Assembly (NCBI RefSeq): GCF_017901155.1
Contig: NZ_CP072800.1
Span: 3,189,283-3,253,282, forward strand
Length of the DNA stretch: 64,000 bases
Origin: Candidatus Thiothrix anitrata
Lineage (GTDB): Bacteria; Pseudomonadota; Gammaproteobacteria; Thiotrichales; Thiotrichaceae
Reading direction: 5' to 3'
Shown here: piece after piece, positions 23,206 to 61,839 of the stretch
Layout: every line of letters starts with the position of its first letter
Position numbering within the stretch: the first letter of the stretch is position 1
Notes under the pieces: generated by a model
What the model was told of the DNA's origin: nothing
The model's input: the letters and a program-made list of their open reading frames with translations, nothing else
Database searches by the model: none
Made by a program: the position numbers and the translations under genes

Positions 23206-24130
23206 GAGGGACTCCTTGTAAACGTGAAAGCACGGCTCGCGCAAAACCATCGGCTAAAACGGCTTCAACGGGCAAATACCATGCGTTAGGAATGGCGTAT
23301 TCGCGGCATTTTACCGCATCTTTTTCAGTCATTAGCACTGGTAAATCATCGTCAAACTGCAATTCTTCCCCAGTAAACGCATGATGATCTGGGTAGGGAT
23401 GCAGCGTAACCAGCAAACCAGCGGCTTCCAGCATCAGCTTAAAACGTTGCGGATTACCGATACCGGTCACGGCGTGAACCTGCTGCCCTGCCAACGCGCT
23501 CAGGGGTTGGGTAGTATTGCCGGTCAAAGCCACGAGAGTTTCGCCGCGCATCTGCATGGTTGTGCCATTAACCACCACGAAATCGCAGCTTTGCAGGCGC
23601 GTCAACCGTTCACGTAACGGGCCTGCGGGTAAACACCAGCCATTGCCCCATTGGCGTTGCCCATCGACGACGCAAATTTCGAGGGTGCGCCCCATGCGGT
23701 AATGCTGTAAACCATCGTCGGCAATCACAATATTGCATCCGTGTTGCTGCAATAAGGTGCTAATCGCACGGTTGCGCTCACGGTCAACCACCAGCGGTAC
23801 ACCAGTACGCTGCATAATCAGCAATGGCTCGTCGCCCAGCCCAGCGGCTTGACGTTGATAGCCGCGACTCACCACCCCCGGTTGATACCCTGCCTGACGC
23901 AATAGCTCAACCAGCCAAATCACTAACGGGGTTTTGCCCGTACCGCCAGCGGTCAGGTTGCCCACCACAATGACTGGCACGGGATGCTGGATTTGCTGAC
24001 GTTGTTGCTGCCAGCGATTCAGCGCGTTGAGCAGGCAATAAAGCGCGGTTAACGGCAATAACAGGTATTTAGCCAGCCACCGCTGACCGTACCAAACTTC
24101 CAGCAGCCATTGCTCAAACTGGCGTTTCAT
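23198..24130 (-). CDS. lpxK: Tetraacyldisaccharide 4'-kinase
   Basis: Phosphorylates the lipid A precursor at the 4' position on the inner leaflet. The product (310 residues) has an N-terminal membrane helix (about 18-37), Walker [13 protein letters not shown] (about 57-68), [16 protein letters not shown] and the [13 protein letters not shown] Walker B region, then LPAGPLRE. It overlaps the end of msbA and the start of the Trm112 gene, so the operon is tightly coupled. Confidence 0.96.
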
Positions 24131-25872
24131 CACGGAACTGCATGGCGTGCAAACGTGCGTATTGACCGCCCAAAGCCAGTAATTCAGCGTGTTGACCCGA
24201 CTCGATAATGGCTCCGTCGTGCATTACCAAAATACGGTCTGCGTTTTCAATGGTGGAAAGCCGGTGGGCAATAATGAAGGTGGTGCGGTTCGCGAGTAAG
24301 CGTTCCAGCGCGGCCTGAATATGGCGTTCGGATTCGGTATCAAGTGCGGAAGTCGCTTCATCCAAGATCAAAACGGGCGCGGGGGATAAAATAGCACGGG
24401 CAATCGACAGCCGTTGGCGTTGCCCACCGGATAAAGTTACGCCGTTATCGCCAATCAACGTATCGAAACCTTGCGGCAATTTCTCGATAAATTCCAGCGC
24501 GTAAGCGGCTTCAGCAGCGGCTTTGATTGCATCGTCAGGCATTCCACGCATATCGCCGTAAGCAATATTATTGCGCACACTGTCATTAAACAACACGATG
24601 TCTTGCCCCACGTAAGCGATTTGCGCCCGCAAATTCGCCAGTTGCAACTCGGCTAACGGCACGTCATCCAGCGTAATTACCCCGCTACTGACATCGTGGA
24701 AGCGCGGTAATAAATTAACTAACGTGGTTTTACCACTACCCGATTTGCCCACCAAAGCAATTTTTTCGCCCGGTTTAACGTCGACAGTAATATTGCGTAA
24801 TACCGCTTTATCGGTTCCCGGATACACAAAGTTAACGTCCTGCAAACGCACCGCACCTTGGCAATGGCTTAAAGTGCGCGTGCCGTTATCGGGTTCTGGC
24901 GGGCTGTCCAATAAGCCGAAAATGCCTTCACCCGCTGCAATCGCAGTTTGTAATTGCAGGTTCAATTGCGTCAGGTTACGGATTGGCGTTAACAATAAAA
25001 TCATCGACATAATGAAAGACATGAACGTGCCGGGCGAGAGTGTTTCCAATGTCGATTCGCGTGTCGCAATGTACACCATCGCAGCTAATGCCAACGCCAC
25101 CATGAACTGCACCAGTGGCGTACTGAGCAATTCAGTCACCATGCGCTTCATTTGCAATGCCATATTATGCACATTGGCTTCATGAAAACGCTGGGATTCG
25201 TAAGCTTGCCCGTTAAAAATACGCATGATTTTGTAGCCGCGAATCATCTCGTGGGAAATTTGCAGTCACATCCCCCACCGAATCCTGTACTTTATGGCTC
25301 AAACGACGCATCCGTCGCGTCACATACACCACAATCAATGCAATGAACGGCACTACAAACATCATGCCCAGAGTCAATTGCCAGCTTTGATAAAACATTA
25401 ACGCTAACAACCCTAAGATCGTCACTGAATCCTGCACCAGCGAAGTCACCCCACGAATGCTCGCGTTTGCCACCTGATCAGCGTAATAACTGACGTAAGC
25501 CAGCAATTTGCCGGATGGAGTGGTTTCAAAAAAGGGAATGGGTAAACGCAGCATATGGCTGAAAATCTGATCACGCAGGACTTGAGTGACTTTGCGTCCA
25601 ACCAGCCCCATGTAATAGCCGGATAAAAACATCGCGGCTCCGCGTAACAGGAAAATACCCAAAATACCCAGTGGCAACCACTGGATCACTGAAGCATCTT
25701 TTTGCAGAATGGCTTTATCCAGCAATGGCCCCAGAATCCACGCAAATAACGGCTGGGTTATCGCCCCTGCGACTAAACCCACCACCGCCAACAGTAAATA
25801 AGGCCAATATTTCAGCGAATAACCGAGCAGTCGTCGATAAACCGACCAGCCGGTAGTCTGGGGTGTTGTCAT
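24114..25872 (-). pseudogene. msbA: Lipid A export ABC transporter MsbA, frame broken once (probably a sequence error)
   Basis: Flips lipid A-core across the inner membrane. Start MTTPQTTGWSVYRRLLGYSL at 25872; six membrane segments (about 20-310) and the nucleotide-binding domain with Walker A VGKSGSGKTTLVN, signature LSGGQRQRLSIARA, Walker B LILDEATSALD and the switch histidine IIAHRLSTIE. The full product would be about 586 residues, normal length. One base offset near 25262 separates the first 205 residues from the rest; re-joining gives VGDVT-QISHEMIRGYKIMR. An essential gene in such bacteria, so a true break is unlikely. Confidence 0.92.
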
Positions 25873-44994: not shown

Positions 44995-47085
44995 TTACTC
45001 ACCGGTTGCGTCTTTCATGCTTAAGCGCATCCGACCTTGGCGGTCGATTTCAATAACCTTAACCTGCACGGTATCGCCAACATTTACAAAGTCAGTGACA
45101 TTTTCCACGCGCTCATTGCTGATTTGAGAAATATGCAGCAAACCGTCTTTGCCCGGCAAAATGGTAACGAACGCGCCGAAGTCCATAATGCGTGCGACTG
45201 TACCGTTGTAAACTTTGTTAATTTCAACTTCAGCGGTAATCGCCTCGATCATGGTACGTGCTTCATACGCTGCTTTCGCGTCAACTGCCGCGATTTTGAT
45301 GAAACCCTCGTCGTCGATATTGACCTGTGCGCCGGTTTTTTCGGTAATGCCACGGATGGTTTCACCGCCCTTACCAATCACTTCACGGATTTTGTCCGGG
45401 TTGATTTTCATGGTGACGTAACGCGGGGCGTATTCGGAAATATCATCGCGTGGTGCTTCCAGACCTTTCGCCATTTCACCCAAGATATACAAACGACCTG
45501 CTTGCGCTTGTACCAACGCTTGTTGCATGATTTCCTTGGTGATGCCAGTGATCTTGATGTCCATTTGCAACGCGGTAATGCCTTCAGCAGAACCTGCCAC
45601 TTTGAAATCCATATCACCGAGGTGATCTTCATCGCCCAAGATGTCGGTCAATACTGCGAAACGCTCACCTTCTTTAATCAAGCCCATTGCGATACCCGCA
45701 ACCGGTGATTTAATCGGCACGCCCGCATCCATCAATGACAAAGAACTACCACAGACGCTCGCCATTGAACTGGAACCGTTAGATTCAGTGATTTCTGAAA
45801 CGCAACGAATGGTGTAAGGGAAATCATCAGTGTGCGGAATCATCGCTTTAACGCCGCGCTTGGCCAAACGCCCGTGACCGATTTCACGACGCTTCGGTGA
45901 ACCGAAACGCCCAGTTTCACCGACGCTGTACGGCGGGAAGTTATAGTTAAACAAGAAGTTATCTTTGTATTCACCGGTAATTGCATCAATCACCTGAGCA
46001 TCACGCTCAGTACCCAAGGTGGTAACCACCAATGCCTGTGTTTCACCACGGGTAAACAAAGCAGAACCGTGAGCGCGTGGTAATACGCCCAGACGCACGC
46101 TGATCGGACGCACGGTTTGCAGATCACGCCCATCAATACGTGGCTTGCCATCTAAAATACTGCCACGCACTACGGTTTTTTCCACATTCTTGAATTCAGC
46201 CTTGATGTCATCAGCACTGAAACCTTCTTCGCCGTCTTTTGCAGCCAGCTTATCAACCGTGCTACTCAGAACTTCGTCAATCCGCGCATAACGCATTTGC
46301 TTGTCAGCCACTTGGAACGCTTCAACCAAATCAGCTTGGCAAGCACCTGCAACTGCATCGGCTAACGCGGTGTTTGCGGTTGGTGGCGTCCAATCCCATG
46401 CCGGATTGCCAACTTCAGCCGCTAATTCTTTAATCGCCTGAATCGCTACCTGCATTTGCTCGTGACCGAACATTACCGCACCCAGCATGACTTCTTCGCT
46501 GAGTTCATCCGCTTCGGATTCAACCATCAATACTGCACTATCAGTGCCCGCGATCACCAAATCCAACGCTGACGTTTTCAAGTCTTCTTTAGAAGGGTTC
46601 AGCATGTATTCGCCATTGCGATAGCCCACACGTGCTGCGCCAATCGGCCCTTGGAATGGCATACCTGATAAAGCCATTACCGCAGAAGAACCCAACATTG
46701 CCGGAATATCCGCGCTAACATCAGCGTTCATGGAAACCACAGTCGCAATCAATTGCACTTCATTGGTAAAGCCTTCCGGGAACAGCGGGCGTAATGGACG
46801 GTCAATCAGACGTGCAACCAAGGTTTCTTCTTCCGTTGCACGCGCTTCGCGCTTGAAGAAACCACCGGGAATACGACCAGCTGCGTAGAACTTTTCTTGA
46901 TAATCCACCGTCATTGGGAAGAAATCACGTCCAACAACTGTTGATTTTTGACCGACTACCGTGACCAACACAGTGGTGTCATCCATAGTAATCATTACTG
47001 CTGCGGTGGCTTGTTTAGCGATTTCGCCAGTTTCGATGGTGACGGTATTATTACCGTATTGGAATGTCTTGGTGAATTTAGCCAT
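44995..47085 (-). CDS. pnp: Polyribonucleotide nucleotidyltransferase (PNPase)
   Basis: 3'-5' phosphorolytic RNA exonuclease of the degradosome. The 696-residue product starts [20 protein letters not shown]. It has two RNase PH domains ([20 protein letters not shown] in the first; [19 protein letters not shown] and [16 protein letters not shown] in the second), a KH domain with [17 protein letters not shown] and an S1 domain ending [20 protein letters not shown]. The ATG at 47085 is the family start; the upstream open frame runs through a palindromic repeat and is not coding. Confidence 0.97.
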
Positions 47086-47131
47086 GACCCTATTATTCCT
47101 TTGATTAGTTTTTACAGTGAACGTATCACGG

Positions 47132-47218
47132 GCAGGCTGTTGAAAAAGATTCTGCCCCCTCATCCCTTGCGGGGGAGGGTTGAGGGTAGTCATTAACCCT
47201 TTTCAACAACCTTCCTGC
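47132..47218. repeat. Large inverted-repeat element between rpsO and pnp
   Basis: Outer arms GCAGG...GTTGAAAAAG and CTTTTCAACAACCTTCCTGC surround an inner palindrome CCCTCA / TGAGGG (47157-47186). This gives an 85-bp stem-loop-like element in the pnp leader region, where RNase III processing sites are found in other bacteria. Confidence 0.7.
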
Positions 47219-47255
47219 GTGATGTGTGATAGTAGAGAGAAAAATTGCACATAAC

Positions 47256-47281
47256 AAAACACCGCACTAAGGCGGTGTTTT
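47256..47281 (-). terminator. Terminator after rpsO
   Basis: Perfect 10-bp stem AAAACACCGC / GCGGTGTTTT with a six-base loop, 16 bases after the rpsO stop. Read-through into pnp is likely, as in E. coli. Confidence 0.85.
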
Positions 47282-47297
47282 GTTTGCTTGCGTCAGA

Positions 47298-47567
47298 TTA
47301 ACGACGCAGGCCAAGGCTGCTGATCAAAGCTTGATAACGCCCCAGATCTTTGCGCTTGAGGTAATCCAACAGCTTGCGGCGTTGGTTTACCATAGCCAAC
47401 ATACCGCGACGGGAATGGTGGTCATGCTTGTGGGTTGCAAAATGGTCCGTCAGATGCTTGATTCGCGCTGTCAGCAGCGCAACTTGCACTTCCGGGGACC
47501 CGGTATCTGTGTCTGATTGGCGGTATTGTTCAACAACACTCGCCTTTACTTCTGCACTCAGAGACAT
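47298..47567 (-). CDS. rpsO: 30S ribosomal protein S15
   Basis: Primary 16S rRNA-binding protein. The 89-residue product starts [20 protein letters not shown] and contains [36 protein letters not shown] and [13 protein letters not shown], all diagnostic. Located upstream of pnp, the usual order. Confidence 0.98.
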
Positions 47568-47662
47568 ATTCGCCTAGGCTCCAGATTAAAGGTTGCTAAA
47601 AAGGCGCAGATTATAGCGTGTTGCGGCAACCTCGTACAGCATTAAAAATTACAGGTCACGCG

Positions 47663-48116
47663 TTACGATTCCTCAGTGTCTATTTTCTGCAACGCCAGTG
47701 CATTAATGCAATAGCGCAACCCACTCGGCTGGCCATCAGGAAATACATGCCCCAAATGCGCATCGCAACCGTTACATGTCGTTTCAACCCGCACCATGCC
47801 GTGTGCATGATCAGCATGATACGCCACTGCATTTTCCTGCACCGGCTGGGTGAAAGAAGGCCAGCCCGTGCCCGAATCAAACTTTTCACGCGCATCAAAC
47901 AATAATGTGCCGCAACACACGCAAGCGTATAAACCCGGCTCAATGCGGCTGCACATTGCCGAGCTGAACGGGCGTTCTGTGCCTTTTAAGCGAGTCACTT
48001 GGTATTGTTCCGGGGTTAACTGCGCCTGCCACTCTATGGCAGTTTTGCTGACACGCTGCGATCGCTGCCGGGTTATTGCCATTGGCAAAATGCAATACAT
48101 CTTTCCAATTCAACAT
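47663..48116 (-). pseudogene. msrB: Peptide-methionine (R)-S-oxide reductase MsrB, frame broken near the N-terminus
   Basis: Repairs oxidised methionine. The main body has EWQAQLTPEQYQVTRLKGTE, two CxxC zinc sites (CVCC and CNGC), FDSGTGWPSF and the catalytic cysteine in GLRYCINALAL. The true start is probably the ATG at 48116 (MLNWKDVLHFANGNNP, with GAAGGTG upstream), in a different frame from the body; the switch is near 48070-48085. A shorter in-frame start at 48100 gives a protein lacking the family N-terminus. Probably a sequence error. It lies 1 base after the DUF1311 gene. Confidence 0.9.
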
Positions 48117-48117
48117 G

Positions 48118-48549
48118 TTACGTTGCACCTTCGTTCAATAAATCCAGTAAATCCTGCAATGCCAGTGCACGTTGCTTCACCACATCAGCGCGTTTGTTCA
48201 CCATCACCGGAATCCACATTGTGCCATCCATTTGCTCATGCACAGCATTGATCAACTCGAATTCCTTGTCACGCTGCGCAATCCATGCACGCTGCGCTTG
48301 TTTCAAGGCTTCTTTCCCGGCGGGCTTGAGTTCACCTTGCAAGGCTTTATAAACGCGGTTCAGCTCCGCGTCCCACTCGGTTTCAGCGCGAGTAAAACAC
48401 CCCACCATACCAGCGGTACTGTGATTGGTTTCCAGACAACGCTCCACGCTCAGATCAATCGCATGGGGCTTAACTGTATTTCCTGCTTCTCTGGCATGGG
48501 CATTGATAGCCAGCAATGACAGTACCGCAATGACTAACCATCGACACAT
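48118..48549 (-). CDS. DUF1311 / LprI-like periplasmic protein
   Basis: A 143-residue exported protein with a signal peptide (about 1-19, ending AHA). The DUF1311 pattern follows: CLETNHSTAGMVGCFTRAE, WDAELNRVYKAL and ALKQAQRAWIAQRDKEF. LprI-type members inhibit lysozyme; others have no known function. AGGAG lies 8 bases before the ATG. It probably shares a transcript with msrB. Confidence 0.85.
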   Translation of the reverse strand: MCRWLVIAVLSLLAINAHAREAGNTVKPHAIDLSVERCLETNHSTAGMVGCFTRAETEWDAELNRVYKALQGELKPAGKEALKQAQRAWIAQRDKEFELINAVHEQMDGTMWIPVMVNKRADVVKQRALALQDLLDLLNEGAT

Positions 48550-48664
48550 AAGCGTTCTCCTAAAAGGATTTCGTGAAAACCACCCGATTTTAGCTTATGC
48601 TACGCGCAGTTACACAGATGTACACAAAGAAATTCCCAACAGTAACATTTAAGGAGCTAATCTT

Positions 48665-49132
48665 ATGAATACCTTCAAAAAAACCCTAGCTATTATCTTC
48701 GCTGCCGCCAGCATCGCAAGCGTTTCCAGCGTTATGGCTGATGAGCAAAAAACCCCAGAAGAAGCAGCGATTGACTACCGCAAAGCGGCTTTCGGCATGA
48801 TCAAACACCACTTCGGCCCAATGGGCGCAATGGTTAAAGGCGAAAAAGAATTCAACGCTGAAGAATTTGCGAAAAATGCCGAAGCGGTGGCTGCATTGAG
48901 CAAATTCCCAATGAACGGCTTCATTGCCGGTAGCGACATGGGCGAAACTGAAGCCAAGGATGACATCTGGTCAAACATGGACGACTTCAAAAAGAAAATG
49001 GAAACCTTCCAGATTGAAGCAGCGTCGTTAGCTGATGTCGCGAAAGGCGGTGACATGGCAGCGATCAAACCACAATTCGGCAAAGTGGGCGAGTCTTGCA
49101 AGGCTTGTCATAAAGAATACAAGAAAGACTGA
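48665..49132 (+). CDS. Cytochrome c' / c-556-type periplasmic cytochrome
   Basis: A 155-residue periplasmic haem protein. Signal peptide about 1-25 (ending VMA), then a four-helix bundle with a C-terminal haem site CKACH (about 146-150) followed by KEYKKD, the layout of class II cytochromes. The expected N-terminal haem-ligand methionine region is YRKAAFGMIKHHFGPMGAMV. AAGGAG precedes the ATG. Possible roles are nitric oxide binding or electron transfer. Transcribed alone. Confidence 0.9.
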   Translation: MNTFKKTLAIIFAAASIASVSSVMADEQKTPEEAAIDYRKAAFGMIKHHFGPMGAMVKGEKEFNAEEFAKNAEAVAALSKFPMNGFIAGSDMGETEAKDDIWSNMDDFKKKMETFQIEAASLADVAKGGDMAAIKPQFGKVGESCKACHKEYKKD

Positions 49133-49143
49133 TTTTCAGCCCA

Positions 49144-49164
49144 CCTCCCCTGTTCAAGGGGAGG
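49144..49164. repeat. GC-rich palindrome after the cytochrome c' gene
   Basis: Perfect 8-bp stem CCTCCCCT / AGGGGAGG, loop of five bases, 12 bases after the stop. Member of the dispersed palindrome family and possible terminator. Confidence 0.65.
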
Positions 49165-49236
49165 CTTGTAGGCAATAGCCGCACCGAAAACTAGCCTGCT
49201 GGGAAAGACGTTGCCGCACTCTCGGTGAAATGAAAC

Positions 49237-49659
49237 TCATGCAGGTTGAAGTTCCCCAGTAGGTAACGGTATTTTATAACCACGCCGCTTCAGCAAAACA
49301 GCGGCGTAACTACGCCTCAACGTTAACACATCCGCTTCACGTTTCAGATTTTGCAAAGCCTGCTGCTCATCGGCGGATAACGCGCCCTGTCTACTGTTAT
49401 CCAACAAAGACTCATAACGCTGCCAATCTGCTGATGGGAAAACACGCCGGGATTCCTGAAGCAACTGCTGGTCATTCATCGCCAACAAAGGAAAAACATC
49501 ATCCTGATAGTCAGCGGGAACATCCTCAAACAAAGGCGGCAACGTATGGCGCAGGCTATCGAGAACAATCACCTCCGCTGGTTGACGAAACAGCGCAGCC
49601 GCACGGCTTAATTGCTGGTAAAGCGCGTCAGATACATTGATAGTAATAGCTTGGCTCAT
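49237..49659 (-). CDS. Hypothetical protein with DNA-binding-like N-terminus
   Basis: A 140-residue protein. The start ITINVSDALYQQLSRAAALF resembles the ribbon-helix-helix-like N-termini of antitoxin-type proteins. The remainder is helical and hydrophilic (LKREADVLTLRRSYAAVLLK). I recall similar orphan or toxin-linked proteins in filamentous bacteria, but cannot name a family. GAAGGTG precedes the ATG. It stands at the left end of the accessory region with the TumE/TumA-like pair. Confidence 0.6.
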   Translation of the reverse strand: MSQAITINVSDALYQQLSRAAALFRQPAEVIVLDSLRHTLPPLFEDVPADYQDDVFPLLAMNDQQLLQESRRVFPSADWQRYESLLDNSRQGALSADEQQALQNLKREADVLTLRRSYAAVLLKRRGYKIPLPTGELQPA

Positions 49660-49789
49660 CTTACACCTTCAAGGTTTACAACCTGCGATGCGCTATCATA
49701 ACCGATAACGAGCAATCGAGAATTACTCTGTTCAACTTTCATGCATTTCAAAGGTAGCCGTTGGCGGTGATTTTCATACTTGGTATGAC

Positions 49790-50133
49790 TCAAGCCGCCG
49801 CTTGTAGCATAAAATCAACGTGAATACCGTCATAAGGAAACGACACGCCATCGCCTGATTTTTTCAACAACCCTGAATTAAGCAAAGCATGAACGTCGCC
49901 GTGTACGGCTTTCACATCACGGTTTACGCGCCGCGCTACTTCACGGAGAGAGAGAACGCCACCGCCTGTCATGGCTTTGATGATTTCCCAACGCTTGATG
50001 GTCAGGGTTTGCCATAACAGTTCAGGGGTTTCAAAGCTGATGCGGGGCGTGGAGTTTGCCCCGTTTTTAATGCGTTAGTGAAGTCTGCCAGTGAGTCTTG
50101 CAACGTGCGGACATCAAGTACGACTGTGTTCAT
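49790..50133 (-). pseudogene. TumA-like (HVO_A0114 family) DNA-binding antitoxin, frame broken once
   Basis: Helix-turn-helix antitoxin partner of TumE. From the ATG at 50133 the product reads MNTVVLDVRTLQDSLADFTN. The frame then changes in the A/G-run stretch near 50055-50070, and the family core follows in a new frame: RISFETPELLWQTLTIKRWE, then SLREVARRVNRDVKAVHGDV and a C-terminal HVDFM. A full product would be about 115 residues. The overlap with TumE-like and the conserved core favour a sequence error. Confidence 0.8.
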
Positions 50134-50410
50134 CGCGCCACCTCATTACGTCTGTATAAAAGTCCGATACCAGCTGATCAATGCTCGTAAAAGTACAGGC
50201 TATTTCTTGTGTGCCAATATGCTTATGGTCGCCTTTGCCTGCCTCATTGTCATAGCGCACCACACAAATACCATCGACCACGAATGCAAGGCGATATTTG
50301 TAGTGATGCAAACTGCCACGCACTGGTGAGGACAACTCCCACGCCACCAATTCTGCAAAACTATTGGCAGATAAAACAATGCGGCGTTGGAATATTTCAG
50401 TGGCACTCAT
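50114..50410 (-). CDS. TumE family toxin (DUF6516)
   Basis: Toxin of the TumE/TumA type II system. The 98-residue product starts MSATEIFQRRIVLSANSFAE and contains the family landmarks VRGSLHHYKYRLAFV, VVRYDNEAGKGDHKH and LVSDFYTDVMRW. Family role is known only as growth inhibition neutralised by TumA. It overlaps the antitoxin start by 20 bases, toxin first. An in-frame start at 50449 is less likely. Confidence 0.88.
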   Translation of the reverse strand: MSATEIFQRRIVLSANSFAELVAWELSSPVRGSLHHYKYRLAFVVDGICVVRYDNEAGKGDHKHIGTQEIACTFTSIDQLVSDFYTDVMRWRDEHSRT

Positions 50411-50701
50411 GTTGGAGAAGATAACAACACTTACAAGGTCAGTCAACAATCAGGTGGTGGGTCAAGCCTATGATTACGGGTAGGGCAGTCCTCTGTGTCT
50501 GCCCTCTTTGATTGAAGAAGGGTAATCGGCTGCACTTGCTTGCGTTCCATACCTACCTCAAAAAAATCGACCGCGCCAAGCGCGGTACACGGCGTAACCC
50601 CACCACCTGCCCACTCGATAAGGTTCATCTAACCCCATAAATTCTGTGGCACTGACGATAAAGGAAAAAGGTTAATTAGTCCTGGCAGCGCGAAATCCAA
50701 C

Positions 50702-50770
50702 ATTGATGCTTCGGTTGACCGGCGTGTTGCCGTAGCGGTAAGCAGAACGCAACCCCTGAGGATCGTTGTT
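50702..50770 (-). other. Candidate DGR variable region 2 (end of second FGE domain)
   Basis: 69-bp segment at the C-terminus of the second FGE domain, between the conserved codons for RGGSW and VGFRAAR. It differs from region 1 at 20 of 69 positions, against 4 differences in the 112 bp before it. In 17 of the 20, one copy has A on the coding strand. It has AAC, AAT or similar codons where region 1 has other residues. Confidence 0.75.
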
Positions 50771-51587
50771 CCACGACCCGCCACGCAACACACGCGACGC
50801 ATCCGCGTCGCAACCCTGACGGGCACTACCATCAATCGGCGCATCCTTGTAATCGCCCTGCCAACAATCTTCCACCCACTCCACACGTTGCCATGCATAT
50901 CAGACAACCCAAACGGGCTTTTCACAAAACTACCTACCGGAGAAGTATAGTCGAATTTGTCACCACACAAGTCACCACTACAATTTGCATTGTTTTTGCC
51001 GATGCTATTCCCCACGAATACGCCGTATCCGTCCCTGCCCGCGCTGCGTATTCCCATTCGGCTTCGGTCGGCAAACGGTACTTCTTACTGGTCTGCTTAC
51101 TCAGCCATTGCACATACGCTTGGGCGTTTTGCCAACTGACTCCCACAATCGGATAGTTATCGCCCGTAAGAGCCTCGCCCAATTTTTTGTAATGATCATC
51201 CTTACCTGTCTGGATATTGTAATCACTACCCTTTTCCTGCCACTCCGGTTCAGGGCAAGCACCCGCTTTCACACACGCCATGTATTGCGCCACCGTCACT
51301 TCGGTTTCGCTCAGCCAGAAGGTGGGTACGTTGACTTCGTGGGCAGGTTTCTCGCTATCGAAACACCCACCTTCCACATCATCGCGCTTAGGATCACACC
51401 CCATCGTGAATTTGCCAGCGGGGATTTGCACCATCGTCGGAGCTGGCACTTTCTGGGTATCGGTTAGCGTTTGAGGAAGAGCAGCCTGAAACGCCTGCCC
51501 TTGCTGGGGAGCTTGTGCCAACTGATCCGCCGTGCCCTTGTCAGTAAAGGGTAAAGGGTTAATTGTCCTGGCAGCGCGAAATCCAAC

Positions 51588-51656
51588 ACTGTAGTATCGG
51601 TTGACCGGCGAGAGGTAGAGGCGGAAAGCAGAACGCAACCACCGAGGTTTGCTGCC
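51588..51656 (-). other. Candidate DGR variable region 1 (end of first FGE domain)
   Basis: 69-bp segment at the end of the first FGE domain, identical in length and phase to region 2. Thirteen codons differ, all changing the amino acid, at the positions that are variable in CLec-fold DGR targets. The following GTTGGATTTCGCGCTGCC is identical in both copies. Confidence 0.75.
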
Positions 51657-52348
51657 CCACGACCCGCCGCGCAACACACGCGACGCATCCGCGTCGCAAC
51701 CCTGACGGGCACTACCATCAATCGGCGCATACTTGTAATCGCCCTGCCAGCAATCTTCCACCCATTCCAAAGCATTGCCGTGTACGTCATACAATCCCAA
51801 CGGATTGGGCTTGAAACTGCCCACTTTCAGCGGAGCTTTTTCCTTGCAATCATCAAATTGTGCGCCATTGGCTGCTTGCGTATCACACACGGGCGGCTGG
51901 TCGCCCCAACTGTAGGCTGTCTTTGTCCCGCCACGGGTGGCATATTCCCATTCAGCCTCACTCGGCAAACGCCATGCCTGTTTAGTCTGTTCGCTTAACC
52001 ACTTGAGGTAAGCTTGTGCATCCTGCCAACTGACACAAGTCACGGGGCTGTCATCGGTCTGGGTGTAGCCGGTTTTACGCCATGAGTTGCCTCTGACATC
52101 ACTCCCACTGCCACTGGCATCATACGACCAGCACGAACCCTCCTTTTCCGCTGTGGTTTGGTACTGGGTAGCATCCACAAAGGCACGGAACTGCCCAAAC
52201 GTAACTTCATACGCACCCATTTCAAACGCGGGGACGTTGACCGTGTGTACGGGTTCTTCATTGTCTTGGCAGTCTTTGTTTTCCACGCAGCCCATCTCAA
52301 ATGTGCCACCGGGGATTTTGACCATCGCAGGCAACGCAGCCTTAAGCC

Positions 52349-52380
52349 CCTCCCCTGATAAGGGGAGGCTGGGAGGGGTT
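52349..52380. repeat. GC-rich palindrome inside coding sequence
   Basis: CCTCCCCT / AGGGGAGG stem (52349-52368) plus a downstream GGGAGGGG arm. It encodes the linker TPPSLPLSGEG just before the first FGE domain. Same family as the intergenic palindromes. Confidence 0.7.
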
Positions 52381-54035
52381 TCTTTCTGCACTAGTTCAAC
52401 CACAACAGGCTCAACCGGGGGTTTTTCCTTCACTGGCCCAGCCACAACAATCTCAATCGGCTTTTTCGTCTGCGGTAAACTCTGCCAAATCGCCACACCC
52501 ACTAACATAGCCGTCAACAGCAAACCACCCGCCACCTCGCGCTTGCGACTACGCAAAGCAGGCCACACCACATCCTCACTAATGACCTTACCTTTGCTAA
52601 TACGCATCAGCCGCTTGCGACTTTCCTCATCATCAGCGTCCGGTAGCGGGAACGGCAACGCATCCTGCTGTAGCTCCTGTTCAATCTGTGCCTGTAACGG
52701 TGCAACCGACACCTGCAATTGTTCCATTGCTGGAATCGCTTGCCTGGGAGAAAACTCCAGCAACAAACGCAAATAACGCCAATACCAAGCGTAATAACGC
52801 AAACAACCCTCATTGTCCGGCTTCGCGGCACGATACCAACCCAATAGCCGTGCCTGCACCCGCTGTTTTTCCTCACCCCGACACCATTGGTGGAACTGCC
52901 CACGCAACAGCCGCAATACATCCACACCCCAATACAGCCCTGAAGCATCAGACTGGGTATTCGGCAAAGCATACAAGCGTTGCAAACGAGTCAATGGCAA
53001 GTGCGGGGCAAATTCACGTAACAGCCGCACCAGCAAAGCAGGACTAACTGGCGGCGGTAGCACCGCGACTATTCGCGCCAATGGCACGGCATCACCCAAC
53101 AAGCGTTGCACATACCCGCCAACGGCTCTTGCGCCCCACGTTGCATGAAGCGTTGGTAAGCTGGCTGGTGTAATGTTGTCTGCACCATTTCACCCGCCAG
53201 TTCACGGAATACCGGAATCAGATTGGCAGGTTCCGCCGTCCACAAGCGGATACCTGCTGCCTGCAAACGCCGTTCACGCCCATTCCAGAAACGCGGCTCG
53301 CGCACAGTCAGCCATGCCAATTGAGGCCACAGTGCCAATTCTTCCAGCAATAACTTGTCCTGTTGCCAGTCGGCCTGCCGTGCATCAGCGAACACCAGCG
53401 TGACATAACGCCCGCGCTCTTCCGCCAATTCCTCCAAGCGAATCAGCTCCCCTTCATCAGTACGGAATTCACGCAAACTGCCATGCAAATACCCCAAGGT
53501 CACGGGTAAACCGCGCTGGCGCAACCCTGCCACCAACTCATACGCCAACGGACACCAACGCTGTTCTGGTGCGGTCACATCGACCAACACTAAAATCTGG
53601 AACAAGGAACGTTGCGACTGCATCCGCACTTCCGGCAAACCCGCCGCTTGCGCAGAGGCTTTGATGGTAGCTGGGACATCCAGCCAACGGCTCTCATCCT
53701 CTGCCACATAAAACCCAATGCTGTCAGCACAATAATCCAGCGTGGCATCATCCAACCAAGCAGGCATTGCCCCGCCCACTTCCGCCGGATCAAAATACAC
53801 CTCGCTATCTTGCTGCCAATGCAGTGCGGTGGGTAGTTCCGGCATTTGCCGCGATTTGCGCAACCGTAGCCATAAATACAGCGTCAGCAAGCCGCTTCCC
53901 AATACTGCTAACCACCACAACCCAATGCTCCAGTTGGTAGATGGCTGGCTGGGAGGAACTTCAGGTTGTACGGGAGGTTTTTCTACAACCGTGGTATCGG
54001 TTGGTTGGGGTTCGGGGTTGGCTTCTGGATTACCC

Positions 54036-54608
54036 TCACCCCGACCCTTCCCCGCAGGGGTGAAGGGGTAAGACAGGAGAAGGCGTGGAATCGACGGTCG
54101 GTAGTGCAGTAGTGGTGGTGGTAGGTTTGGAAACAAGCTGTTGGGATGCTGGCTTATTCAGGTGAGTCAATAAAACCAGTGTTCCAATAAAGACACCCGC
54201 AATCAACAGGGTAACTATCCACCAGAACCGCCCGCTTCCTGCTTCTTCCTGTGCATCCACCAATTGAGGTTGGACAGTTTTTGGTTGCTCCCGCTGCTGC
54301 TCAAATTGTGCGACTAATTGCTGTAAGTCCTGTTGCAGACGGGCAATGTCTACGGCTTGTTGGGTAGCGTCCCCATCCTCTGCTTGCTGAAACTGCTGGT
54401 ATAACCGCTCGAAATCCTCCCGTTGCTGTGCATTCTTCGCCAACAATACCAGTAACACTTGCCGCAACCGTGTAGGTGTCCAAGCCGTATCGGTTTCCAA
54501 CACTTGTTGCACACGGCGCAGATCATCCAGTGTTAAATGGATGCCCACCACAGACAATCCTGATAGGAAGGGTGCGAGTGGGAATGTTGGGGAAAATGCA
54601 GGTTTCAT
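54036..54608 (-). CDS. Coiled-coil single-span membrane protein of the conflict cluster
   Basis: A 190-residue product. The N-terminal helical part (FLSGLSVVGIHLTLDDLRRV, then WTPTRLRQVLLVLLAKNAQQ) resembles the helical region preceding vWA domains in CoxE-like MoxR partner proteins. A Gln-rich coiled coil follows (about 65-115), then one membrane segment (about 130-152) and a Thr/Pro-rich tail. The final codons (LPLHPCGEGSG) come from a copy of the GC-rich palindrome, which introduces the stop. The gene may once have been fused to the next one. Starts 9 bases after the Pepco-like gene. Function unknown. Confidence 0.65.
   Translation of the reverse strand: MKPAFSPTFPLAPFLSGLSVVGIHLTLDDLRRVQQVLETDTAWTPTRLRQVLLVLLAKNAQQREDFERLYQQFQQAEDGDATQQAVDIARLQQDLQQLVAQFEQQREQPKTVQPQLVDAQEEAGSGRFWWIVTLLIAGVFIGTLVLLTHLNKPASQQLVSKPTTTTTALPTVDSTPSPVLPLHPCGEGSG
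54045..54067. repeat. GC-rich palindrome at the junction of two conflict-cluster genes
   Basis: CCCTT...AAGGG arms with CCCC/GGGG inner pairing. It forms the 3' end of the coiled-coil membrane protein gene and overlaps the start region of the FGE gene. Confidence 0.6.
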
Positions 54609-54617
54609 TGTCAGCGT

Positions 54618-54930
54618 TTAGGCAGGTTCAAACACCAGCTTGATAGAGCCTTTGCCGCCCACCTTGCCGCTGGCAATCAGGTTGATACCGCCCTCGCCAC
54701 TGATCTCAATGCCTAGCTCTACTTTGTTCAGTTTGAATTTACCGACTGTTTCTACCTTACTGAATACTTCGCTGAGTTGTTCACTCAATTCCTGCATCTT
54801 GTTGGCAAGTTCGGCACTGTCGATTTCCCGGATACCCGGGCGGTAAATTGCGCCCACCACGCCCCAATGTACTCGAAGGCGTTCTGGCAGCTTCATTCTC
54901 ATCCGCCACACGAATATACATTTTACTCAT
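54618..54930 (-). pseudogene. Pepco/Trypco-like small conflict-system protein, frame broken once
   Basis: About 105 residues when repaired. The N-terminus MSKMYIRVADENEAARTPSS (ATG at 54930) is in one frame, the rest (REIDSAELANKMQELSEQLS, then LNKVELGIEISGEGGINLIA and GGKGSIKLVFEPA) in another. The switch is at about 54834-54840 and is cured by one G in CCCGGG. The C-terminal pattern, 'xLxxVELxxEISxEGGxxLxxxGKxxGKGxIxLxF', is that of peptidase- or trypsin-co-occurring domains (Pepco, Trypco1), which accompany CHAT and trypsin proteases in conflict systems. Divergent from the CHAT gene. Confidence 0.7.
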
Positions 54931-55014
54931 AGCCGTAAACCTGTTAAATATTGGTTCAGAAACGATTAATCAAGCGTGTTTATATACCATGCTGGGCAAC
55001 AGGGAAACCTCCAG

Positions 55015-56931
55015 ATGCAATTGAATTGTTGGCTCACCCCCACGCAGGAAAAAGGTCTTTATGATCTTGCCTTGGAGTTCCCGCAACAAAGCCGCCGTGT
55101 CAATTTGGGAAAAACCGATTTACGCCTGCAATGCCAGCTCAACCTGCTCAATGAATCCATAACGTTGCACGATGTGCTTGACCTACTGGACAAGTTCAAT
55201 GAAGACACCATCAGGCAGTACACCAATGAAGCAGGCATGTACGACATTGGCGTATTCCTCTACCGAGCAACCTTGGGCAAGCATCGCGGCGGGAACTGGA
55301 TCAGGAAGCCGTTGATTTGCGCATAATCAGCCCTTGCGAGCACATCCATCGCTTGCCTTGGAACATGCTGGCGCGTGACAGCGACAACCGTTTTCTGCGT
55401 TACGCCGACTGGCAGATAACACTAGCACGTGAGTACAACCCGCAGCGGGTGGAAATGCCCAGCCTGCCCGCCTTGCTGGTATTTAGTCCACCGGAAATCG
55501 ACGGCTACGGTATGACCGGAACGGATGTCCATATCCGCCAGCTACAAATCGAATTGACCGCAGAAATCCGTTCTTATGAAAGCCCTACCCTGTTTAAGCT
55601 CGTGCATACTCGTCAGGAGTTGGAACGTGTGCTGCAACGCCAGCATTTTGACGTGCTGTATTACTACGGACACGGCGAAGGTGACGACCTGAGTTCACGC
55701 CTGCGATTAGAAGCCCCAACTCCAGCCAACCCCGGAACCATGAGCCTAATCCACCTACGTGAAACCTTGCAACGGGCGGTAGGTGGCTCGCCAGCGGTGT
55801 GCTACATCAATGCCTGCATGAGTGCCAGCGGCGGCAAAATGGGGGCTGGCCTGCAACTGGGTTATGGCTGCGCCGCTGTGATCGCCAACCGTACCGAAGC
55901 GTGGGTATCTGTTGCCCAACGACAAGGCTTGAGCTTTTTGAAGTACATCTTGCTGGATGCTTTGTCCCCGCATGAAGCCTTACACCGCACAGTCACCAGT
56001 GGTTATGAAGATGTGGGGGATTCATCGTGGGCAACACCCATCCTGACCCGTCATTACACCGAATGGCAATGCAAACGCAAACCCAACCTGCACCACCTGA
56101 ACCGGCAAGATAAAGACTGGCCTCTCAAGCTAGATCGAGTCAGCCAAAGTGGCTACATAGGTGAATACATGGAAGCCGTCCTCAATGGCAGTGTCGATAC
56201 GCTGTGTTGTGTTTGGTATGGCAGTGCAGCGGTTGGGGTCGATTTACTGCATGAGCGCGTTCAGCATAAAGTCCCCGGCAATACTGACCTGATTACCTGC
56301 CAAATGAACTGGCCGATGGCTATCACTGATGAAAACCGCGATGAAATGTTCCGTGCTAGCCTGTTGGCAGGCTTCCGATGCATTTATCACGCCGCCCCCT
56401 AGCAGTATTGAAGCGATTCCGCGTTTCCTGAAAGAAGTGTCACTCCACGCGGGCAGCCACCGTTTACTGTTTCATCTGCGCCTGCAAACAGTGCGTCCCA
56501 TCGACAAGGATTGGGCTATCCCAACCAACTTCAAACATTTTCTCGACTGGTGGCAGCGGGTTGTTGCACCAGAACTGAGCAAAGCACGGATTCCCGCCAT
56601 CATCACCCTCGGTTATGAACTGGATAACCTGAAAAAACTCGAAGAGCAGTACGACAAACACCTGAAGCCACTCAACACCCAACAATTGATGGTCAGGCGT
56701 TTACCTCCACTGGAACCCATTTCCCAAGACCACATGCGTGACTTTATCCAAACGTTCAAACTGCCCGTACCGCCACAAATATTGGATGCCAAGGTTGCCG
56801 AAATTGAAAGAGAAACTGGCGGGCATTACCAACGCACACTGGAATGTTTGATCAATTTATACGAACACAGTGTCATGATTACCCCTGATAACGTCTATGC
56901 TTCTGCCGATGACGATTTCGACTTTGCTTAA
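55015..56931 (+). pseudogene. CHAT caspase-like protease with C-terminal STAND-like region; two frame breaks
   Basis: Putative effector protease of the conflict cluster, about 638 residues when repaired. The N-terminal part (about 1-105) is followed by a CHAT domain (about 110-350) with the catalytic histidine in LYYYGHGEGDD and cysteine in CYINACMSASGG. Then comes a region with a degenerate P-loop-like VWYGSAAVGVDLLHERV, resembling inactive-STAND modules, and a helical C-terminus (DHMRDFIQTFKLPVPP). Frame changes occur at about 55290 (one G missing in GGCGGG) and about 56376 (one base extra or two missing). The start is taken at the ATG at 55015. MoxR follows after 10 bases. Confidence 0.8.
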
Positions 56932-56941
56932 GGATGCAACT

Positions 56942-57892
56942 ATGAGCCGTTACCCCTTCGCCCTGCTGGATCACCCTAACGCACGTAATGGGCATGAGTT
57001 ACTGAGCCAACGTAACCAAAGCCACCGCCGTAATCTGAAAAAAGATGCCACCCGTTTTGACCCTGACGAAGCCCTGAAAACCGCTATCCATACCGCTATC
57101 GCTATTGGGGAACCACTGCTGCTGACAGGTGATGCAGGAACGGGTAAAACGCAAACCGCCTATTACGTTGCCGAAATGCTGGGGTTGGATGAAGTGCTGT
57201 CGTTTCAGGTTAAATCCAGCAGTTCAGCACAGGATGTGTTGTACCGTTTTGACCATGTGAAATATTACCGAGAGGCAGGCTCCAAAGATGCCACGGATAC
57301 CAACACCATCAAATGGAAATCCATCAGCAAGGGTGTGTTGTGGCAGGCACTTGAAGCAACCAAGACCCGCGTGGTGTTAATCGACGAAATCGACAAGGCT
57401 TCCCGCGATTTTCCCAATGACTTGCTGCATGAACTCGATCAGATGGAGTTCACTATTCCCGAATTGAATGATTTGGTGATTGGCGGGGAAAAAAGCCATC
57501 GTCCTTTGGTATTCATCACCTCCAATAACGAGCGGCGTTTACCCGATGCCTTCCTGCGCCGTTGCGTTTTTCATCATGTTGAATTTAACGAAAAGCTGTT
57601 GCAACGCGCCTTAAAAGCACATAAAGACGATTTCAAGAATTTACCGCCAGCCTTTGTTGACCTTGCAGTGAATCGTTTTTTGATTCTGAGGGAGAAGCAT
57701 TTGCGCAAACGACCGGCTACCGGGGAGTTTTTAGCGTGGCTGCGCGTGTTGGCGATGCTGGCGGAAACGTCGGAAGAGACTTTGCAACGGGCGTTAGTTG
57801 CTGCTGAAGATGATTTAACCAAACTGCCTTATCTTGGGGTTCTCCTGAAAGACAGACACGATCTCGAAAACATAGCAATACAAGGGTTTTAA
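56942..57892 (+). CDS. MoxR-type AAA+ ATPase of the conflict cluster
   Basis: A 316-residue ATPase. Walker A is LTGDAGTGKTQTAYYVAE (about 62-79), Walker B RVVLIDEIDKASRDFP, sensor FITSNNERRLPDAFLRRC with arginine finger. MoxR ATPases act with vWA-domain proteins as chaperone-like switches; in conflict systems they are thought to license the effector. AAGGATG stands before the ATG at 56942. It is directly downstream of the CHAT gene. Confidence 0.92.
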   Translation: MSRYPFALLDHPNARNGHELLSQRNQSHRRNLKKDATRFDPDEALKTAIHTAIAIGEPLLLTGDAGTGKTQTAYYVAEMLGLDEVLSFQVKSSSSAQDVLYRFDHVKYYREAGSKDATDTNTIKWKSISKGVLWQALEATKTRVVLIDEIDKASRDFPNDLLHELDQMEFTIPELNDLVIGGEKSHRPLVFITSNNERRLPDAFLRRCVFHHVEFNEKLLQRALKAHKDDFKNLPPAFVDLAVNRFLILREKHLRKRPATGEFLAWLRVLAMLAETSEETLQRALVAAEDDLTKLPYLGVLLKDRHDLENIAIQGF

Positions 57893-57896
57893 CCCG

Positions 57897-57920
57897 AACC
57901 TCCCCGAATCCGGGGAGGTT
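57897..57920. terminator. Hairpin after the MoxR gene
   Basis: Perfect 10-bp stem AACCTCCCCG / CGGGGAGGTT, four-base loop, between convergent genes. Also a member of the palindrome family. Confidence 0.7.
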
Positions 57921-57930
57921 CACACCGTCA

Positions 57931-59061
57931 TTAACCAATCCGTACTGAATCCGGTGCTTTGGGGAAATGCGGTAAACTGGTTTCAGCAACAAGCCCTGCT
58001 TGCGCTGCGGCTTTCAACTCGTCTGCTTTTCTGTCAACGATCCAGTCGGTAATACCAGCCCCGATCCACATGCTAAACAGCGCGACCCATGCGGTAATTA
58101 CCAAAATCGCGCCGCCGGTAACACCCGCACCAACCGCACAACCACCCGCCAGCATCCCGCCAAACCCCATCAAAGCCGCGCCGATAAAAAAGCGGGCAAA
58201 GCCACTGTCGGAGGTGAATTGCTGCCATTTGAATTCATGTGTCACCAAAGCCGCCAGCAATGAGCCTAAAAATACGCCGGGTACTAAACCCACATCAAAG
58301 CTCAGTGGCAGTGTCGGTTGATTGATCAAACCCATCAGGGTGTCGGCTGAAGAACCCGTAAAGCTCACGCTTTTAATCGCCACAATATCAAAGGAATTAG
58401 CAGCTTGCAGACTGGTTAACAACCATCCCAAAGCCACGGACAGGCCGGTAATAACCGCCGCGACACCCCACCATTTACTCAATTGGTGACGTTTAGCAAA
58501 CCACAAACCCAGTAAAAATAAAACGATACCAATGATTAAACCACCGTAAGATGGCAACCAACCAGCAAAACTGCGAGACTGCCCATCAACCAGCCACCAA
58601 GAAGATAACTCTTCACGCAATGGTGATAGTCCACCGGTCAAGGATGCTTGCGCCACAATCGTGACCACCAGTCCCGCAACCATTGTGCGCATATTTCCGG
58701 TCGCGGATAACACCAACAAACGGCTCGCACAACCACCAGCTAACACCATACCCGCGCCAAACAACAAACCACCAATAATGGCACCTGACATTGAGCCGGT
58801 ATTGTTCAACTGACGAATCTGCCCGGTATCAATCACGCCGGTTCCAATAAAGTATTGCGTACCAATCATCGCGGCACTGAATGCCAGCAACCAGATGGCA
58901 AACTTTTTACCCGTCTGACCACGCCAGAACTCCACACAAGCCGCACGCAAACAAAAACGGCTTTGCTGGGCAAAAATACCGAAGATCAACCCAACCGTTA
59001 AGCCAAGGATGGCTGATATTTCTTCCGTAGCAAAATACTCTAATAAGGCATCATAGTTCAT
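57931..59061 (-). CDS. YeeE/YedE family transporter (thiosulfate/sulfur-compound uptake)
   Basis: A 376-residue polytopic inner-membrane protein with about ten segments. The family hallmarks are two copies of a Cys-containing motif: GAGMVLAGGCASRLLVLSAT and GFGGMLAGGCAVGAGVTGGA. An early SRFCLRAACVEFWRG supplies further cysteines. TsuA-type members import thiosulfate. ATG at 59061 chosen because GGGGGA lies 8 bases upstream. It fits a sulfur-oxidising lifestyle. Convergent with the MoxR gene. Confidence 0.88.
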   Translation of the reverse strand: MNYDALLEYFATEEISAILGLTVGLIFGIFAQQSRFCLRAACVEFWRGQTGKKFAIWLLAFSAAMIGTQYFIGTGVIDTGQIRQLNNTGSMSGAIIGGLLFGAGMVLAGGCASRLLVLSATGNMRTMVAGLVVTIVAQASLTGGLSPLREELSSWWLVDGQSRSFAGWLPSYGGLIIGIVLFLLGLWFAKRHQLSKWWGVAAVITGLSVALGWLLTSLQAANSFDIVAIKSVSFTGSSADTLMGLINQPTLPLSFDVGLVPGVFLGSLLAALVTHEFKWQQFTSDSGFARFFIGAALMGFGGMLAGGCAVGAGVTGGAILVITAWVALFSMWIGAGITDWIVDRKADELKAAAQAGLVAETSLPHFPKAPDSVRIG

Positions 59062-59195
59062 AAATTCATCCCCCATTTCCGACGAGGAGGAGCATCGGAA
59101 AGTTGTTCAATTAACCAATGGGGGGCATATTAAGTGAGAATATTATTAAATGCTAATGATCTGTATCAAGGAAATGAAAGTTTCGCGCGCAAGCA

Positions 59196-59872
59196 TCAAG
59201 CCGCCAACCACTCAATCCAAGCAAAAACTGCGGCATACACTGCGACAAACACTAACAAGCCGAACCAAGCAGGCTTAAAAGCCAACTCAACCGGCGGCGA
59301 TTGTTCCGCAGGCCAATCTGCCTTACCAACCACCATCGCTTTAATCAAGTTGGTACGCTTATAAAAACGGTAAAACAGCACAGCAGCAATGTGCAGCGCA
59401 GCCAGCAACAAAATGCCATTGAAGTTTAAATGATGAATAGAGGTCAACACTTCGGCCGTACTCATCGTTACCAACCCGATTAACGGCCCTTCGGTCATAA
59501 TATCATCGGTAGCAAACAGCCCGGTACTCGCCTGCATCAGCACTGCCAGCAGCAAGGCCACCACCATCCACGCGCCCAGCGGGTTATGCCCCGCATGAAA
59601 CGCTGTTGCCTTAGTGCGCAACTCACTGAAATGTGTCAAGGCGTGACGCGGCGATTTCAAAAACTGCGCAAACCGCGCCGTATCGCTGCCGATAACACCC
59701 CAAACCACCCGAAACACCACCAAGGCCAGCAGGAAAATCCCGCTACGTTCGTGCCACACCATCCAGTTACCGCCGATTTCCGCGCAAAACCACGAGAAAC
59801 CAATGCCGAGAACCAATGCCCAGTGAAACAACCGTGTGGGTAAATCCCACAGCCTGACGGGAATCGTTTGCA

Positions 59873-59873
<1 letters not shown>
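59196..59873 (-). CDS. Cytochrome b561 / Ni-Fe hydrogenase b-type membrane cytochrome
   Basis: A 225-residue di-haem membrane protein. Start MQTIPVRLWDLPTRLFHWAL (first haem histidine in RLFHW), WMVWHERSG, then HYGHNP-like HAGHNPLGAWMVVALL and a C-terminal LLAALHIAAVLFYRFYKRTN, the histidine pattern of b561-type cytochromes. Passes electrons between quinone and a periplasmic partner. The start overlaps the dapB stop by 1 base. Confidence 0.88.

Positions 59874-61839
<1,966 letters not shown>

What the first reader, a model, noticed from the sequence alone, without database searches (positions are those of the whole stretch)
50672..57892. Putative DGR-diversified conflict system: double-FGE sensor, CHAT protease, MoxR ATPase and Pepco-like adaptor
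Two divergent gene groups share a short intergenic region. Reverse strand: a Pepco/Trypco-like small protein, a coiled-coil membrane protein and a membrane protein with a degenerate vWA-like region plus two FGE/C-type-lectin domains. Forward strand: a CHAT caspase-like protease with a STAND-like tail, then a MoxR AAA+ ATPase. Each part alone belongs to known families of NTPase-linked conflict systems. The combination of a membrane-anchored tandem lectin-fold receptor with a CHAT/MoxR module suggests that ligand binding outside the cell or in the periplasm is relayed to a suicide protease inside. The architecture with two hypervariable lectin domains in one protein is, as far as I know, unusual.
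Basis: partly seen in the sequence, partly recalled or inferred. Interest (0 to 1): 0.92.

Follow-up and report, generated by a model that had tools for sequence, protein, structure and literature searches.

The report
Membrane immune sensor with CHAT protease
This is a bacterial self-destruct-type immune module in which a membrane receptor with two once-hypervariable binding domains is linked to an internal caspase-like protease; the module type is already described, but here the machine that diversified the receptor appears to have been lost.

Summary
The domains are real: FGE (E 2.9e-96, two copies), Pepco (3.9e-19), CHAT (2.3e-7), MoxR-type AAA+. Relatives show four genes: Pepco; one sensor of about 1313 aa (helical domain, TM, TM, vWA-like, TM, FGE, FGE); CHAT with an inactive-STAND tail; MoxR. 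CHAT lies next to MoxR in 22 of 28 named loci. This is a vWA-MoxR-iSTAND ternary conflict system (Kaur 2020); the sensor idea is Dore 2024.

The DGR claim is half right. The two FGE domains share a block of up to 98% DNA identity inside domains otherwise 41-71% identical; its core differences are 13 non-synonymous codons, 19 of 20 bases at codon positions 1-2, as DGR homing leaves. Two Verrucomicrobia relatives carry an intact DGR inside the same locus. The window's genome showed no DGR-type RT, Avd or template, and a marine relative holds a collapsed Avd-template remnant. So the receptor's diversifier looks lost. The closest relative has a LysM-SPOR frame where the FGE pair would be, fitting a periplasmic receptor end.

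Whether the window's copy is intact is open: sensor frames are broken in 4 of 6 same-genus loci.

The parts
54618..54911 (-). Pepco domain protein (97 aa)
   Evidence: Pfam PF24393 E 3.9e-19; Pepco also in relatives L119, L122, L128, L131
54036..54608 (-). sensor, frame piece 1: N-terminal helical domain and TM1 (about 54165-54221)
   Evidence: aligns to residues 1-110 of the single-frame sensors L040/L043; TM score 2.42
53069..54136 (-). sensor, frame piece 2: TM2 (about 53873-53929) and vWA-like domain
   Evidence: 51% to L040, 62% to L039; both metal aspartates; NCBIfam SAV_2336_NTERM 3.3e-4, below cut-off
50934..53111 (-). sensor, frame piece 3: helical linker, TM3 (about 52479-52535), FGE1 and most of FGE2
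   Evidence: Pfam FGE-sulfatase 2.9e-96, two stretches; TM score 1.71
50672..50884 (-). sensor, frame piece 4: end of FGE2
   Evidence: ORF; matches the second FGE of L040 (78%) and L041 (80%)
51532..51769 (-). VR-like block of FGE1
   Evidence: 85% to the FGE2 block; differences at codon positions 1-2
50646..50883 (-). VR-like block of FGE2
54976..55326 (+). CHAT-iSTAND protein, frame piece 1
   Evidence: 81% to the N terminus of the 651-aa single frame in L039
55317..56402 (+). CHAT-iSTAND protein, frame piece 2: CHAT domain (His in YYYGHG, Cys in YINAC) and start of the STAND-like tail
   Evidence: Pfam CHAT 2.3e-7; dyad aligned
56329..56931 (+). CHAT-iSTAND protein, frame piece 3: rest of the tail
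   Evidence: 92% to L039; no Pfam hit of its own
56897..57892 (+). MoxR-type AAA+ ATPase
   Evidence: Pfam AAA_5 2.3e-11; NCBIfam MadB 4.2e-21, below cut-off; Walker A GDAGTGKT, Walker B VVLIDEID

Best explanation
A vWA-MoxR-iSTAND ternary conflict system. The sensor sits in the inner membrane with its N-terminal helical domain and vWA-like domain inside and two C-type-lectin FGE domains in the periplasm. A ligand (phage or competitor surface molecule, or envelope damage) bound by the FGE pair changes the vWA part; the MoxR ring, which works on vWA partners, relays this to the CHAT-iSTAND protein, whose caspase-like cysteine protease then cleaves cell proteins and stops or kills the cell. Pepco is a co-occurring regulator or adaptor. 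A diversity-generating retroelement (DGR) once rewrote the FGE tips; in this genome its RT, Avd and template are gone, so the receptor keeps the specificity last written. Shown here: gene set, conservation, CHAT dyad, TM pattern, VR footprints, DGR absence at the sensitivity used, cis-DGR in relatives. Inferred: ligand, direction of signal, MoxR relay, protease targets, cell death, role of Pepco, that the window copy is functional.
For: CHAT next to MoxR in 22 of 28 named loci, sensor N-terminal half in 14 of 28, two or more FGE domains in one frame in 6 of 28 (the CHAT profile was built partly from these loci). iSTAND in 10 of 18 CHAT proteins, best 6.1e-7; model of L107 protein (pLDDT 83) hits separase 5.7e-7, SAVED-CHAT 1.2e-6, Csx29 4.0e-6, Cdc6/Orc1 2.7e-6, CED-4 1.5e-5, Apaf-1 1.2e-4. 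Cys in 18 of 18, His in 16 of 18. Sensor model's first Foldseek match is a NorQD-complex chain, but at E 0.022. K/R-rich flanks place the vWA part inside. LysM-SPOR frame after TM3 in T. singaporensis, PEGA+TPR after the last TM in L116. VR footprint: 98% block in 41-71% domains, 13 of 13 core codons non-synonymous, 1 of 20 base differences at codon position 3. Template/VR tests in relatives: L121 A 17/31 and 14/31 against 1/101 non-A each; L128 A 11/28 and 12/29 against 6/83 and 2/83; G057:C16 A 17/27 and 15/28 against 0/100 and 1/96.
Against: No function was tested. Two sensors with FGE (L119, L121) have no TM segment, and L107 and L117 miss TM2 and L130 misses TM1 at the threshold used, so the periplasmic placing is not family-wide. 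CHAT His is Tyr in L120 and L123. No Pfam VWA hit; Foldseek has no match at E<=0.001 for the sensor model. Sensor frames are broken in 4 of 6 same-genus loci and CHAT in the window. PADLOC has no model for the CHAT or sensor proteins. Non-A template mismatches exist in L128.
Confidence: 0.5

Rival explanations
1. Kaur-type order of events: the iSTAND/CHAT protein senses the invader and the FGE domains are effectors, bound or released when the vWA protein is processed through MoxR and the protease.
For: Kaur 2020 (passages) places FGS domains in the vWA effector position and proposes third components such as VMAP and iSTAND as sensors; the C-terminal position varies widely here too: FGE, WD40, PEGA+TPR, LysM-SPOR.
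Against: FGE domains lie behind TM3, across the membrane from the CHAT protease in most homologs; DGR hypervariation is hard to explain for an effector; a peptidoglycan-binding swap fits an anchored ectodomain.
Confidence: 0.25
2. Envelope quality-control or adhesion module without immunity: MoxR-vWA act as an insertase/chaperone pair (as NorQ-NorD) and the ectodomain binds cell wall or glycans.
For: First Foldseek match of the sensor model is a NorQD chain (E 0.022); LysM-SPOR and PEGA alternatives.
Against: CHAT dyad conserved in 16 of 18; cis-DGR in two loci; conflict-type partners Pepco/Trypco.
Confidence: 0.12
3. In the window strain the locus is a decaying pseudogene: DGR lost, sensor and CHAT frames broken.
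For: Sensor in four and CHAT in three frames; sensors broken in G061, G050, G056 too; G059 keeps only a short MoxR remnant, 86% over 35 aa.
Against: MoxR and Pepco intact; VR differences are amino-acid-changing with constant framework; another window gene family (ABC transporter, 24114-25869) is split as well, suggesting sequencing error.
Confidence: 0.35
4. The shared FGE block comes from gene conversion between the two domains, not from DGR homing.
For: Conversion also makes a sharp high-identity block; no template is present.
Against: Differences sit in 13 codons, all non-synonymous, 19 of 20 at positions 1-2, at the place that DGR templates match in L121, L128 and G057:C16.
Confidence: 0.1

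Closest known systems
[quoted passage not shown] 2020, PMC7159879; passages read)
   Same: MoxR, vWA component with N-terminal helical domain and TM segments, inactive STAND third component with caspase-like N terminus, FGS as commonest C-terminal domain
   Different: The DGR passages of that paper (all 6 places) tie DGRs to VMAP systems, not iSTAND; here DGR, its remnant or its footprints lie in iSTAND-type loci; Pepco partner; ectodomain placed outside
DGR-diversified antigen sensors of Thiohalocapsa and others (Dore et al. 2024, PMC10907252; section 13 and passages read)
   Same: Sensor with vWA and tandem CLec/FGE next to MoxR and a protease; same proposed signal direction; some periplasmic targets
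   Different: They describe VMAP systems with trypsin, and CHAT inside a target (DGR 2); here CHAT is fused to iSTAND and the DGR is absent from the genome
SAVED-CHAT (8tl0) and TPR-CHAT Csx29 (8eex)
   Same: CHAT protease fold and defence setting (Foldseek; roles partly recalled)
   Different: Activated there by cyclic nucleotide or CRISPR target RNA (recalled); here by a MoxR-vWA membrane receptor, inferred
MADS MadB/MadC (NCBIfam)
   Same: MoxR-type ATPase and vWA-like partner show weak similarity
   Different: 75.4 bits against a cut-off of 475; not members

Membership tests
vWA-MoxR-iSTAND ternary system | MoxR-clade AAA+ ATPase | tested here: met
   AAA_5 2.3e-11, Walker motifs; the clade's helix-2 insert was not checked
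vWA-MoxR-iSTAND ternary system | vWA-domain partner | tested here: inconclusive
   two aspartates 13 of 14 each; Foldseek NorQD chain first at E 0.022; MadC VWA in 3 of 14, best 0.024; no Pfam VWA hit
vWA-MoxR-iSTAND ternary system | inactive STAND third component | tested here: met
   10 of 18 members hit PF19995 at E<=1, best 6.1e-7; Orc1/CED-4/Apaf-1 among model matches; met for the family, the window's own pieces are below detection
vWA-MoxR-iSTAND ternary system | caspase-like, trypsin-like, TIR or EAD N terminus on the third component | tested here: met
   CHAT 2.3e-7
vWA-MoxR-iSTAND ternary system | variable C-terminal domain, often FGS, on the vWA protein | tested here: met
   FGE 2.9e-96; WD40, PEGA+TPR in others
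VMAP ternary system | VMAP C-terminal module on the third component | tested here: not met
   no such family among Pfam hits of 18 members; that Pfam holds a VMAP-C model is recalled
Active diversity-generating retroelement target | DGR-type reverse transcriptase in the genome | tested here: not met
   3 RVT_1 matches in own genome, read by eye as two CRISPR-linked RTs and one 604-aa RT without the DGR motif; a DGR RT query finds only the CRISPR-linked one
Active diversity-generating retroelement target | Avd accessory protein | tested here: not met
   0 matches in own genome
Active diversity-generating retroelement target | template repeat with A-limited mismatches | tested here: not met
   own genome holds only the two VR copies and one 63-nt 77% match inside another FGE gene
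Past DGR target | VR-type substitutions in a C-type-lectin fold | tested here: met
   without a template the A-limit itself cannot be tested in the window
CHAT protease | His/Cys dyad | tested here: met
   window has both; Cys 18 of 18, His 16 of 18
MADS (MadB/MadC) | scores above NCBIfam cut-offs | tested here: not met
   MadB 75.4 against 475 bits

The most novel reading that the evidence does not exclude
A transmembrane, once-adaptive immune receptor of bacteria: DGR-written lectin tips outside the inner membrane gate a one-chain 'CHAT protease plus Apaf-1/CED-4-like' executioner inside. In Thiothrix the writer has been lost, leaving a fixed receptor, and its ectodomain can be exchanged or switched: LysM-SPOR in the closest species, and in T. 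fructosivorans a heptanucleotide array (GTTGGGG x4) at TM3 exactly where the frame passes from the vWA half to the FGE half, the form of a phase-variation switch.
Probability: 0.25. Interest if true: 0.8.

Novelty: new variant of a known kind. Interest (0 to 1): 0.5.

Why it matters
If right, it gives a case for asking what happens to DGR-made receptors when the diversifier is lost: intact cis-DGR (L121, L128), collapsed remnant (L111) and footprint only (window, G061) in one gene family. It also sets the two published models against each other in a testable way, since a periplasmic diversified domain can hardly be a cytosolic effector. The CHAT-iSTAND chain, with protease and Apaf-1/CED-4-like parts in one protein, bears on how caspase-type death pathways arose.

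Tried and rejected
Rejected: an intact DGR in the window (no RT, Avd, template). Rejected: a trans template in G050, G061 or the window genome found with relatives' VRs (E<=1e-4, so a very diverged template could be missed). Rejected: MADS membership. Rejected: RT or Avd remnants near the window's sensor (tblastn, E<=1, no hit in window 46000-60000). Looked for phase-variation repeats in the window sensor: none of note. PDB sequence search gave only SAVED-CHAT at 3e-4 for CHAT and nothing for the sensor. PADLOC gave only weak AAA+ hits for MoxR.

Paper searches: 'Thiothrix' with 'diversity-generating retroelement' 0 papers; 'CHAT protease' with 'MoxR' 0; iSTAND/MoxR/CHAT 11, none of the listed ones about this set beyond Kaur, Burroughs and Dore; Pepco/Trypco/MoxR/CHAT. 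The library is open-access PMC only, and supplements were not read.
Full report
What is there. Pfam finds FGE-sulfatase (2.9e-96), Pepco (3.9e-19), CHAT (2.3e-7) and AAA_5 (2.3e-11) in the reported stretch, plus a TumE toxin just downstream of the FGE gene.

Anatomy. In 63 genomes of the family, MoxR matches at E<=1e-10 occur in 28; six loci in five genomes have 52% identity or more, the window included. Of 20 loci fetched around MoxR matches, five (L039-L043, four genomes) also match the window's CHAT piece by tblastn. In L040 and L043 the sensor is one frame of 1313 and 1324 aa: helical domain, TM, (TM), vWA-like, helical, TM, FGE, FGE. CHAT is one frame of 626-657 aa in all five.

Spread. 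A scan of 84,980 species' genomes with the MoxR alignment returned 28 named loci in Thiothrix, marine and symbiotic Gammaproteobacteria, Desulfobacterota, Acidobacteriota, Planctomycetota, Verrucomicrobia and Azospirillum. CHAT is adjacent to MoxR in 22 of 28; of the six misses, three (L109, L118, L129) have under 700 nt upstream of MoxR, and L110, L112 and L132 are true misses, L110 with fragments nearby. The sensor N-terminal half is found in 14 of 28, two or more FGE in one frame in 6 of 28, a DGR-type RT in 2 of 28. The CHAT profile was built from 18 rows, 17 of them from these loci, so the count is partly by construction; L108, L114, L116, L124 and L130 were not in it.

The protease. The aligned family keeps Cys in 18 of 18 and His in 16 of 18 rows (Tyr in L120, L123). 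A model of the L107 protein (pLDDT 83.1) matches separase, SAVED-CHAT and Csx29, and also Cdc6/Orc1, CED-4 and Apaf-1 (query TM-scores are low, 0.17-0.33, and aligned ranges were not given, so putting the AAA+/STAND matches on the tail is my inference). Pfam iSTAND hits 10 of 18 members.

The sensor. Three TM segments with K/R-rich flanks on the side expected for a cytoplasmic vWA part are clear in L111, L131, L116, L122, L125, L127, L128 and L055, and the window pieces fit; L113 is ambiguous, L107 and L117 miss TM2 and L130 misses TM1 at the threshold, and L119 and L121 have none. The model of the L107 half shows a helix at the TM2 place. Domains behind the last TM are FGE, WD40 (L122, L127), or PEGA+TPR (L116). 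In T. singaporensis, 80-90% identical elsewhere, a LysM-SPOR frame follows TM3 instead of FGE (SPOR 5.2e-13, LysM 5.1e-6), but in another frame than the sensor half. The vWA-like fold is weakly supported: first Foldseek match a NorQD-complex chain at E 0.022.

DGR history. In L121 and L128 (Verrucomicrobia) an RT and template lie between sensor and CHAT, and both FGE copies differ from the template mainly at A: 17/31 and 14/31 against 1/101 each; 11/28 and 12/29 against 6/83 and 2/83. In G057:C16, a TIR-type MoxR system of the genus, the figures are 17/27 and 15/28 against 0/100 and 1/96, next to an Avd and an RT lacking its middle. In L111 the space between sensor and CHAT holds 61 aa of an Avd (77% to G058's) running into a template piece with AAC codons and the conserved end; Pfam did not call this fragment. 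In the window only the two VR blocks remain, and searches for RT, Avd and template in the genome failed. G061 is alike: no DGR RT, Avd or template match. A plasmid missing from the assembly could still carry a DGR.

Frame breaks. Sensors are broken in the window, G061, G050 and G056, and whole in both G057 loci; CHAT is broken only in the window. In G050, G061 and G056 a break lies at TM3 or just after it. In G050 it coincides with a 7-nt array of four copies, preceded by 33- and 75-nt repeats; arrays of four or more 7-mers occur at four distinct places in 1.15 Mb of held loci. In G061 the junction has runs of G and C up to eight long. In the window no repeat marks the breaks. Switching, decay and sequencing error are all open.

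Known and new. Kaur 2020 (passages) describes vWA-MoxR-iSTAND systems with caspase-like N termini, TM segments in about 28% and FGS in about 22%. Its six DGR passages concern VMAP systems or DGRs in general. Dore 2024 (section 13 and passages) proposes DGR targets as sensors acting through MoxR, with three tandem CLec in two loci. So this is a new variant of a known kind: CHAT-iSTAND loci with cis-DGR, remnant or footprint, and an ectodomain outside the membrane.

Noticed in passing
L042:6302-6541 (T. fructosivorans, same place in L131:7095): 33-, 75- and 7-nt tandem repeats at TM3 of the sensor; the frame changes across the 7-nt array. Looks like a phase-variation tract.
   Followed up: partly
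L099:7030-15429 (own genome, about 2.99 Mb): A second MoxR system: trypsin-like protein, Trypco1 (8.7e-11), MoxR, an FGE protein of 988 aa and two more FGE genes.
   Followed up: partly
window 50114-50449 and L041:12769-13358: TumE toxin gene downstream of the window's sensor; an RHH/ParE pair between sensor and CHAT in G061. Toxin-antitoxin genes sit where other loci have the DGR.
   Followed up: partly
L055:40-10786 (G057:C16): TIR-type third component, MoxR, vWA-like-FGE sensor, Avd, template and an RT without its middle part, and a second FGE gene.
   Followed up: partly
G000:C1:3099851-3100462, 3086031-3086600, 2291352-2291798: Three reverse transcriptases: by eye one beside CRISPR repeats, one Cas6-RT-Cas1-like fusion, one 604-aa protein beside an IS110-like gene (names recalled).
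   Followed up: no
G059:C1:2646439-2646543: Short MoxR remnant, 86% identical over 35 aa, in a genus member without the system nearby.
   Followed up: no
window linker after TM3, and linkers in L040, L041, L043: Short peptide inserts such as PPSLPLSGEG and PPSPPFAKGG recur in linkers, as if a small dispersed DNA repeat inserts in frame.
   Followed up: no
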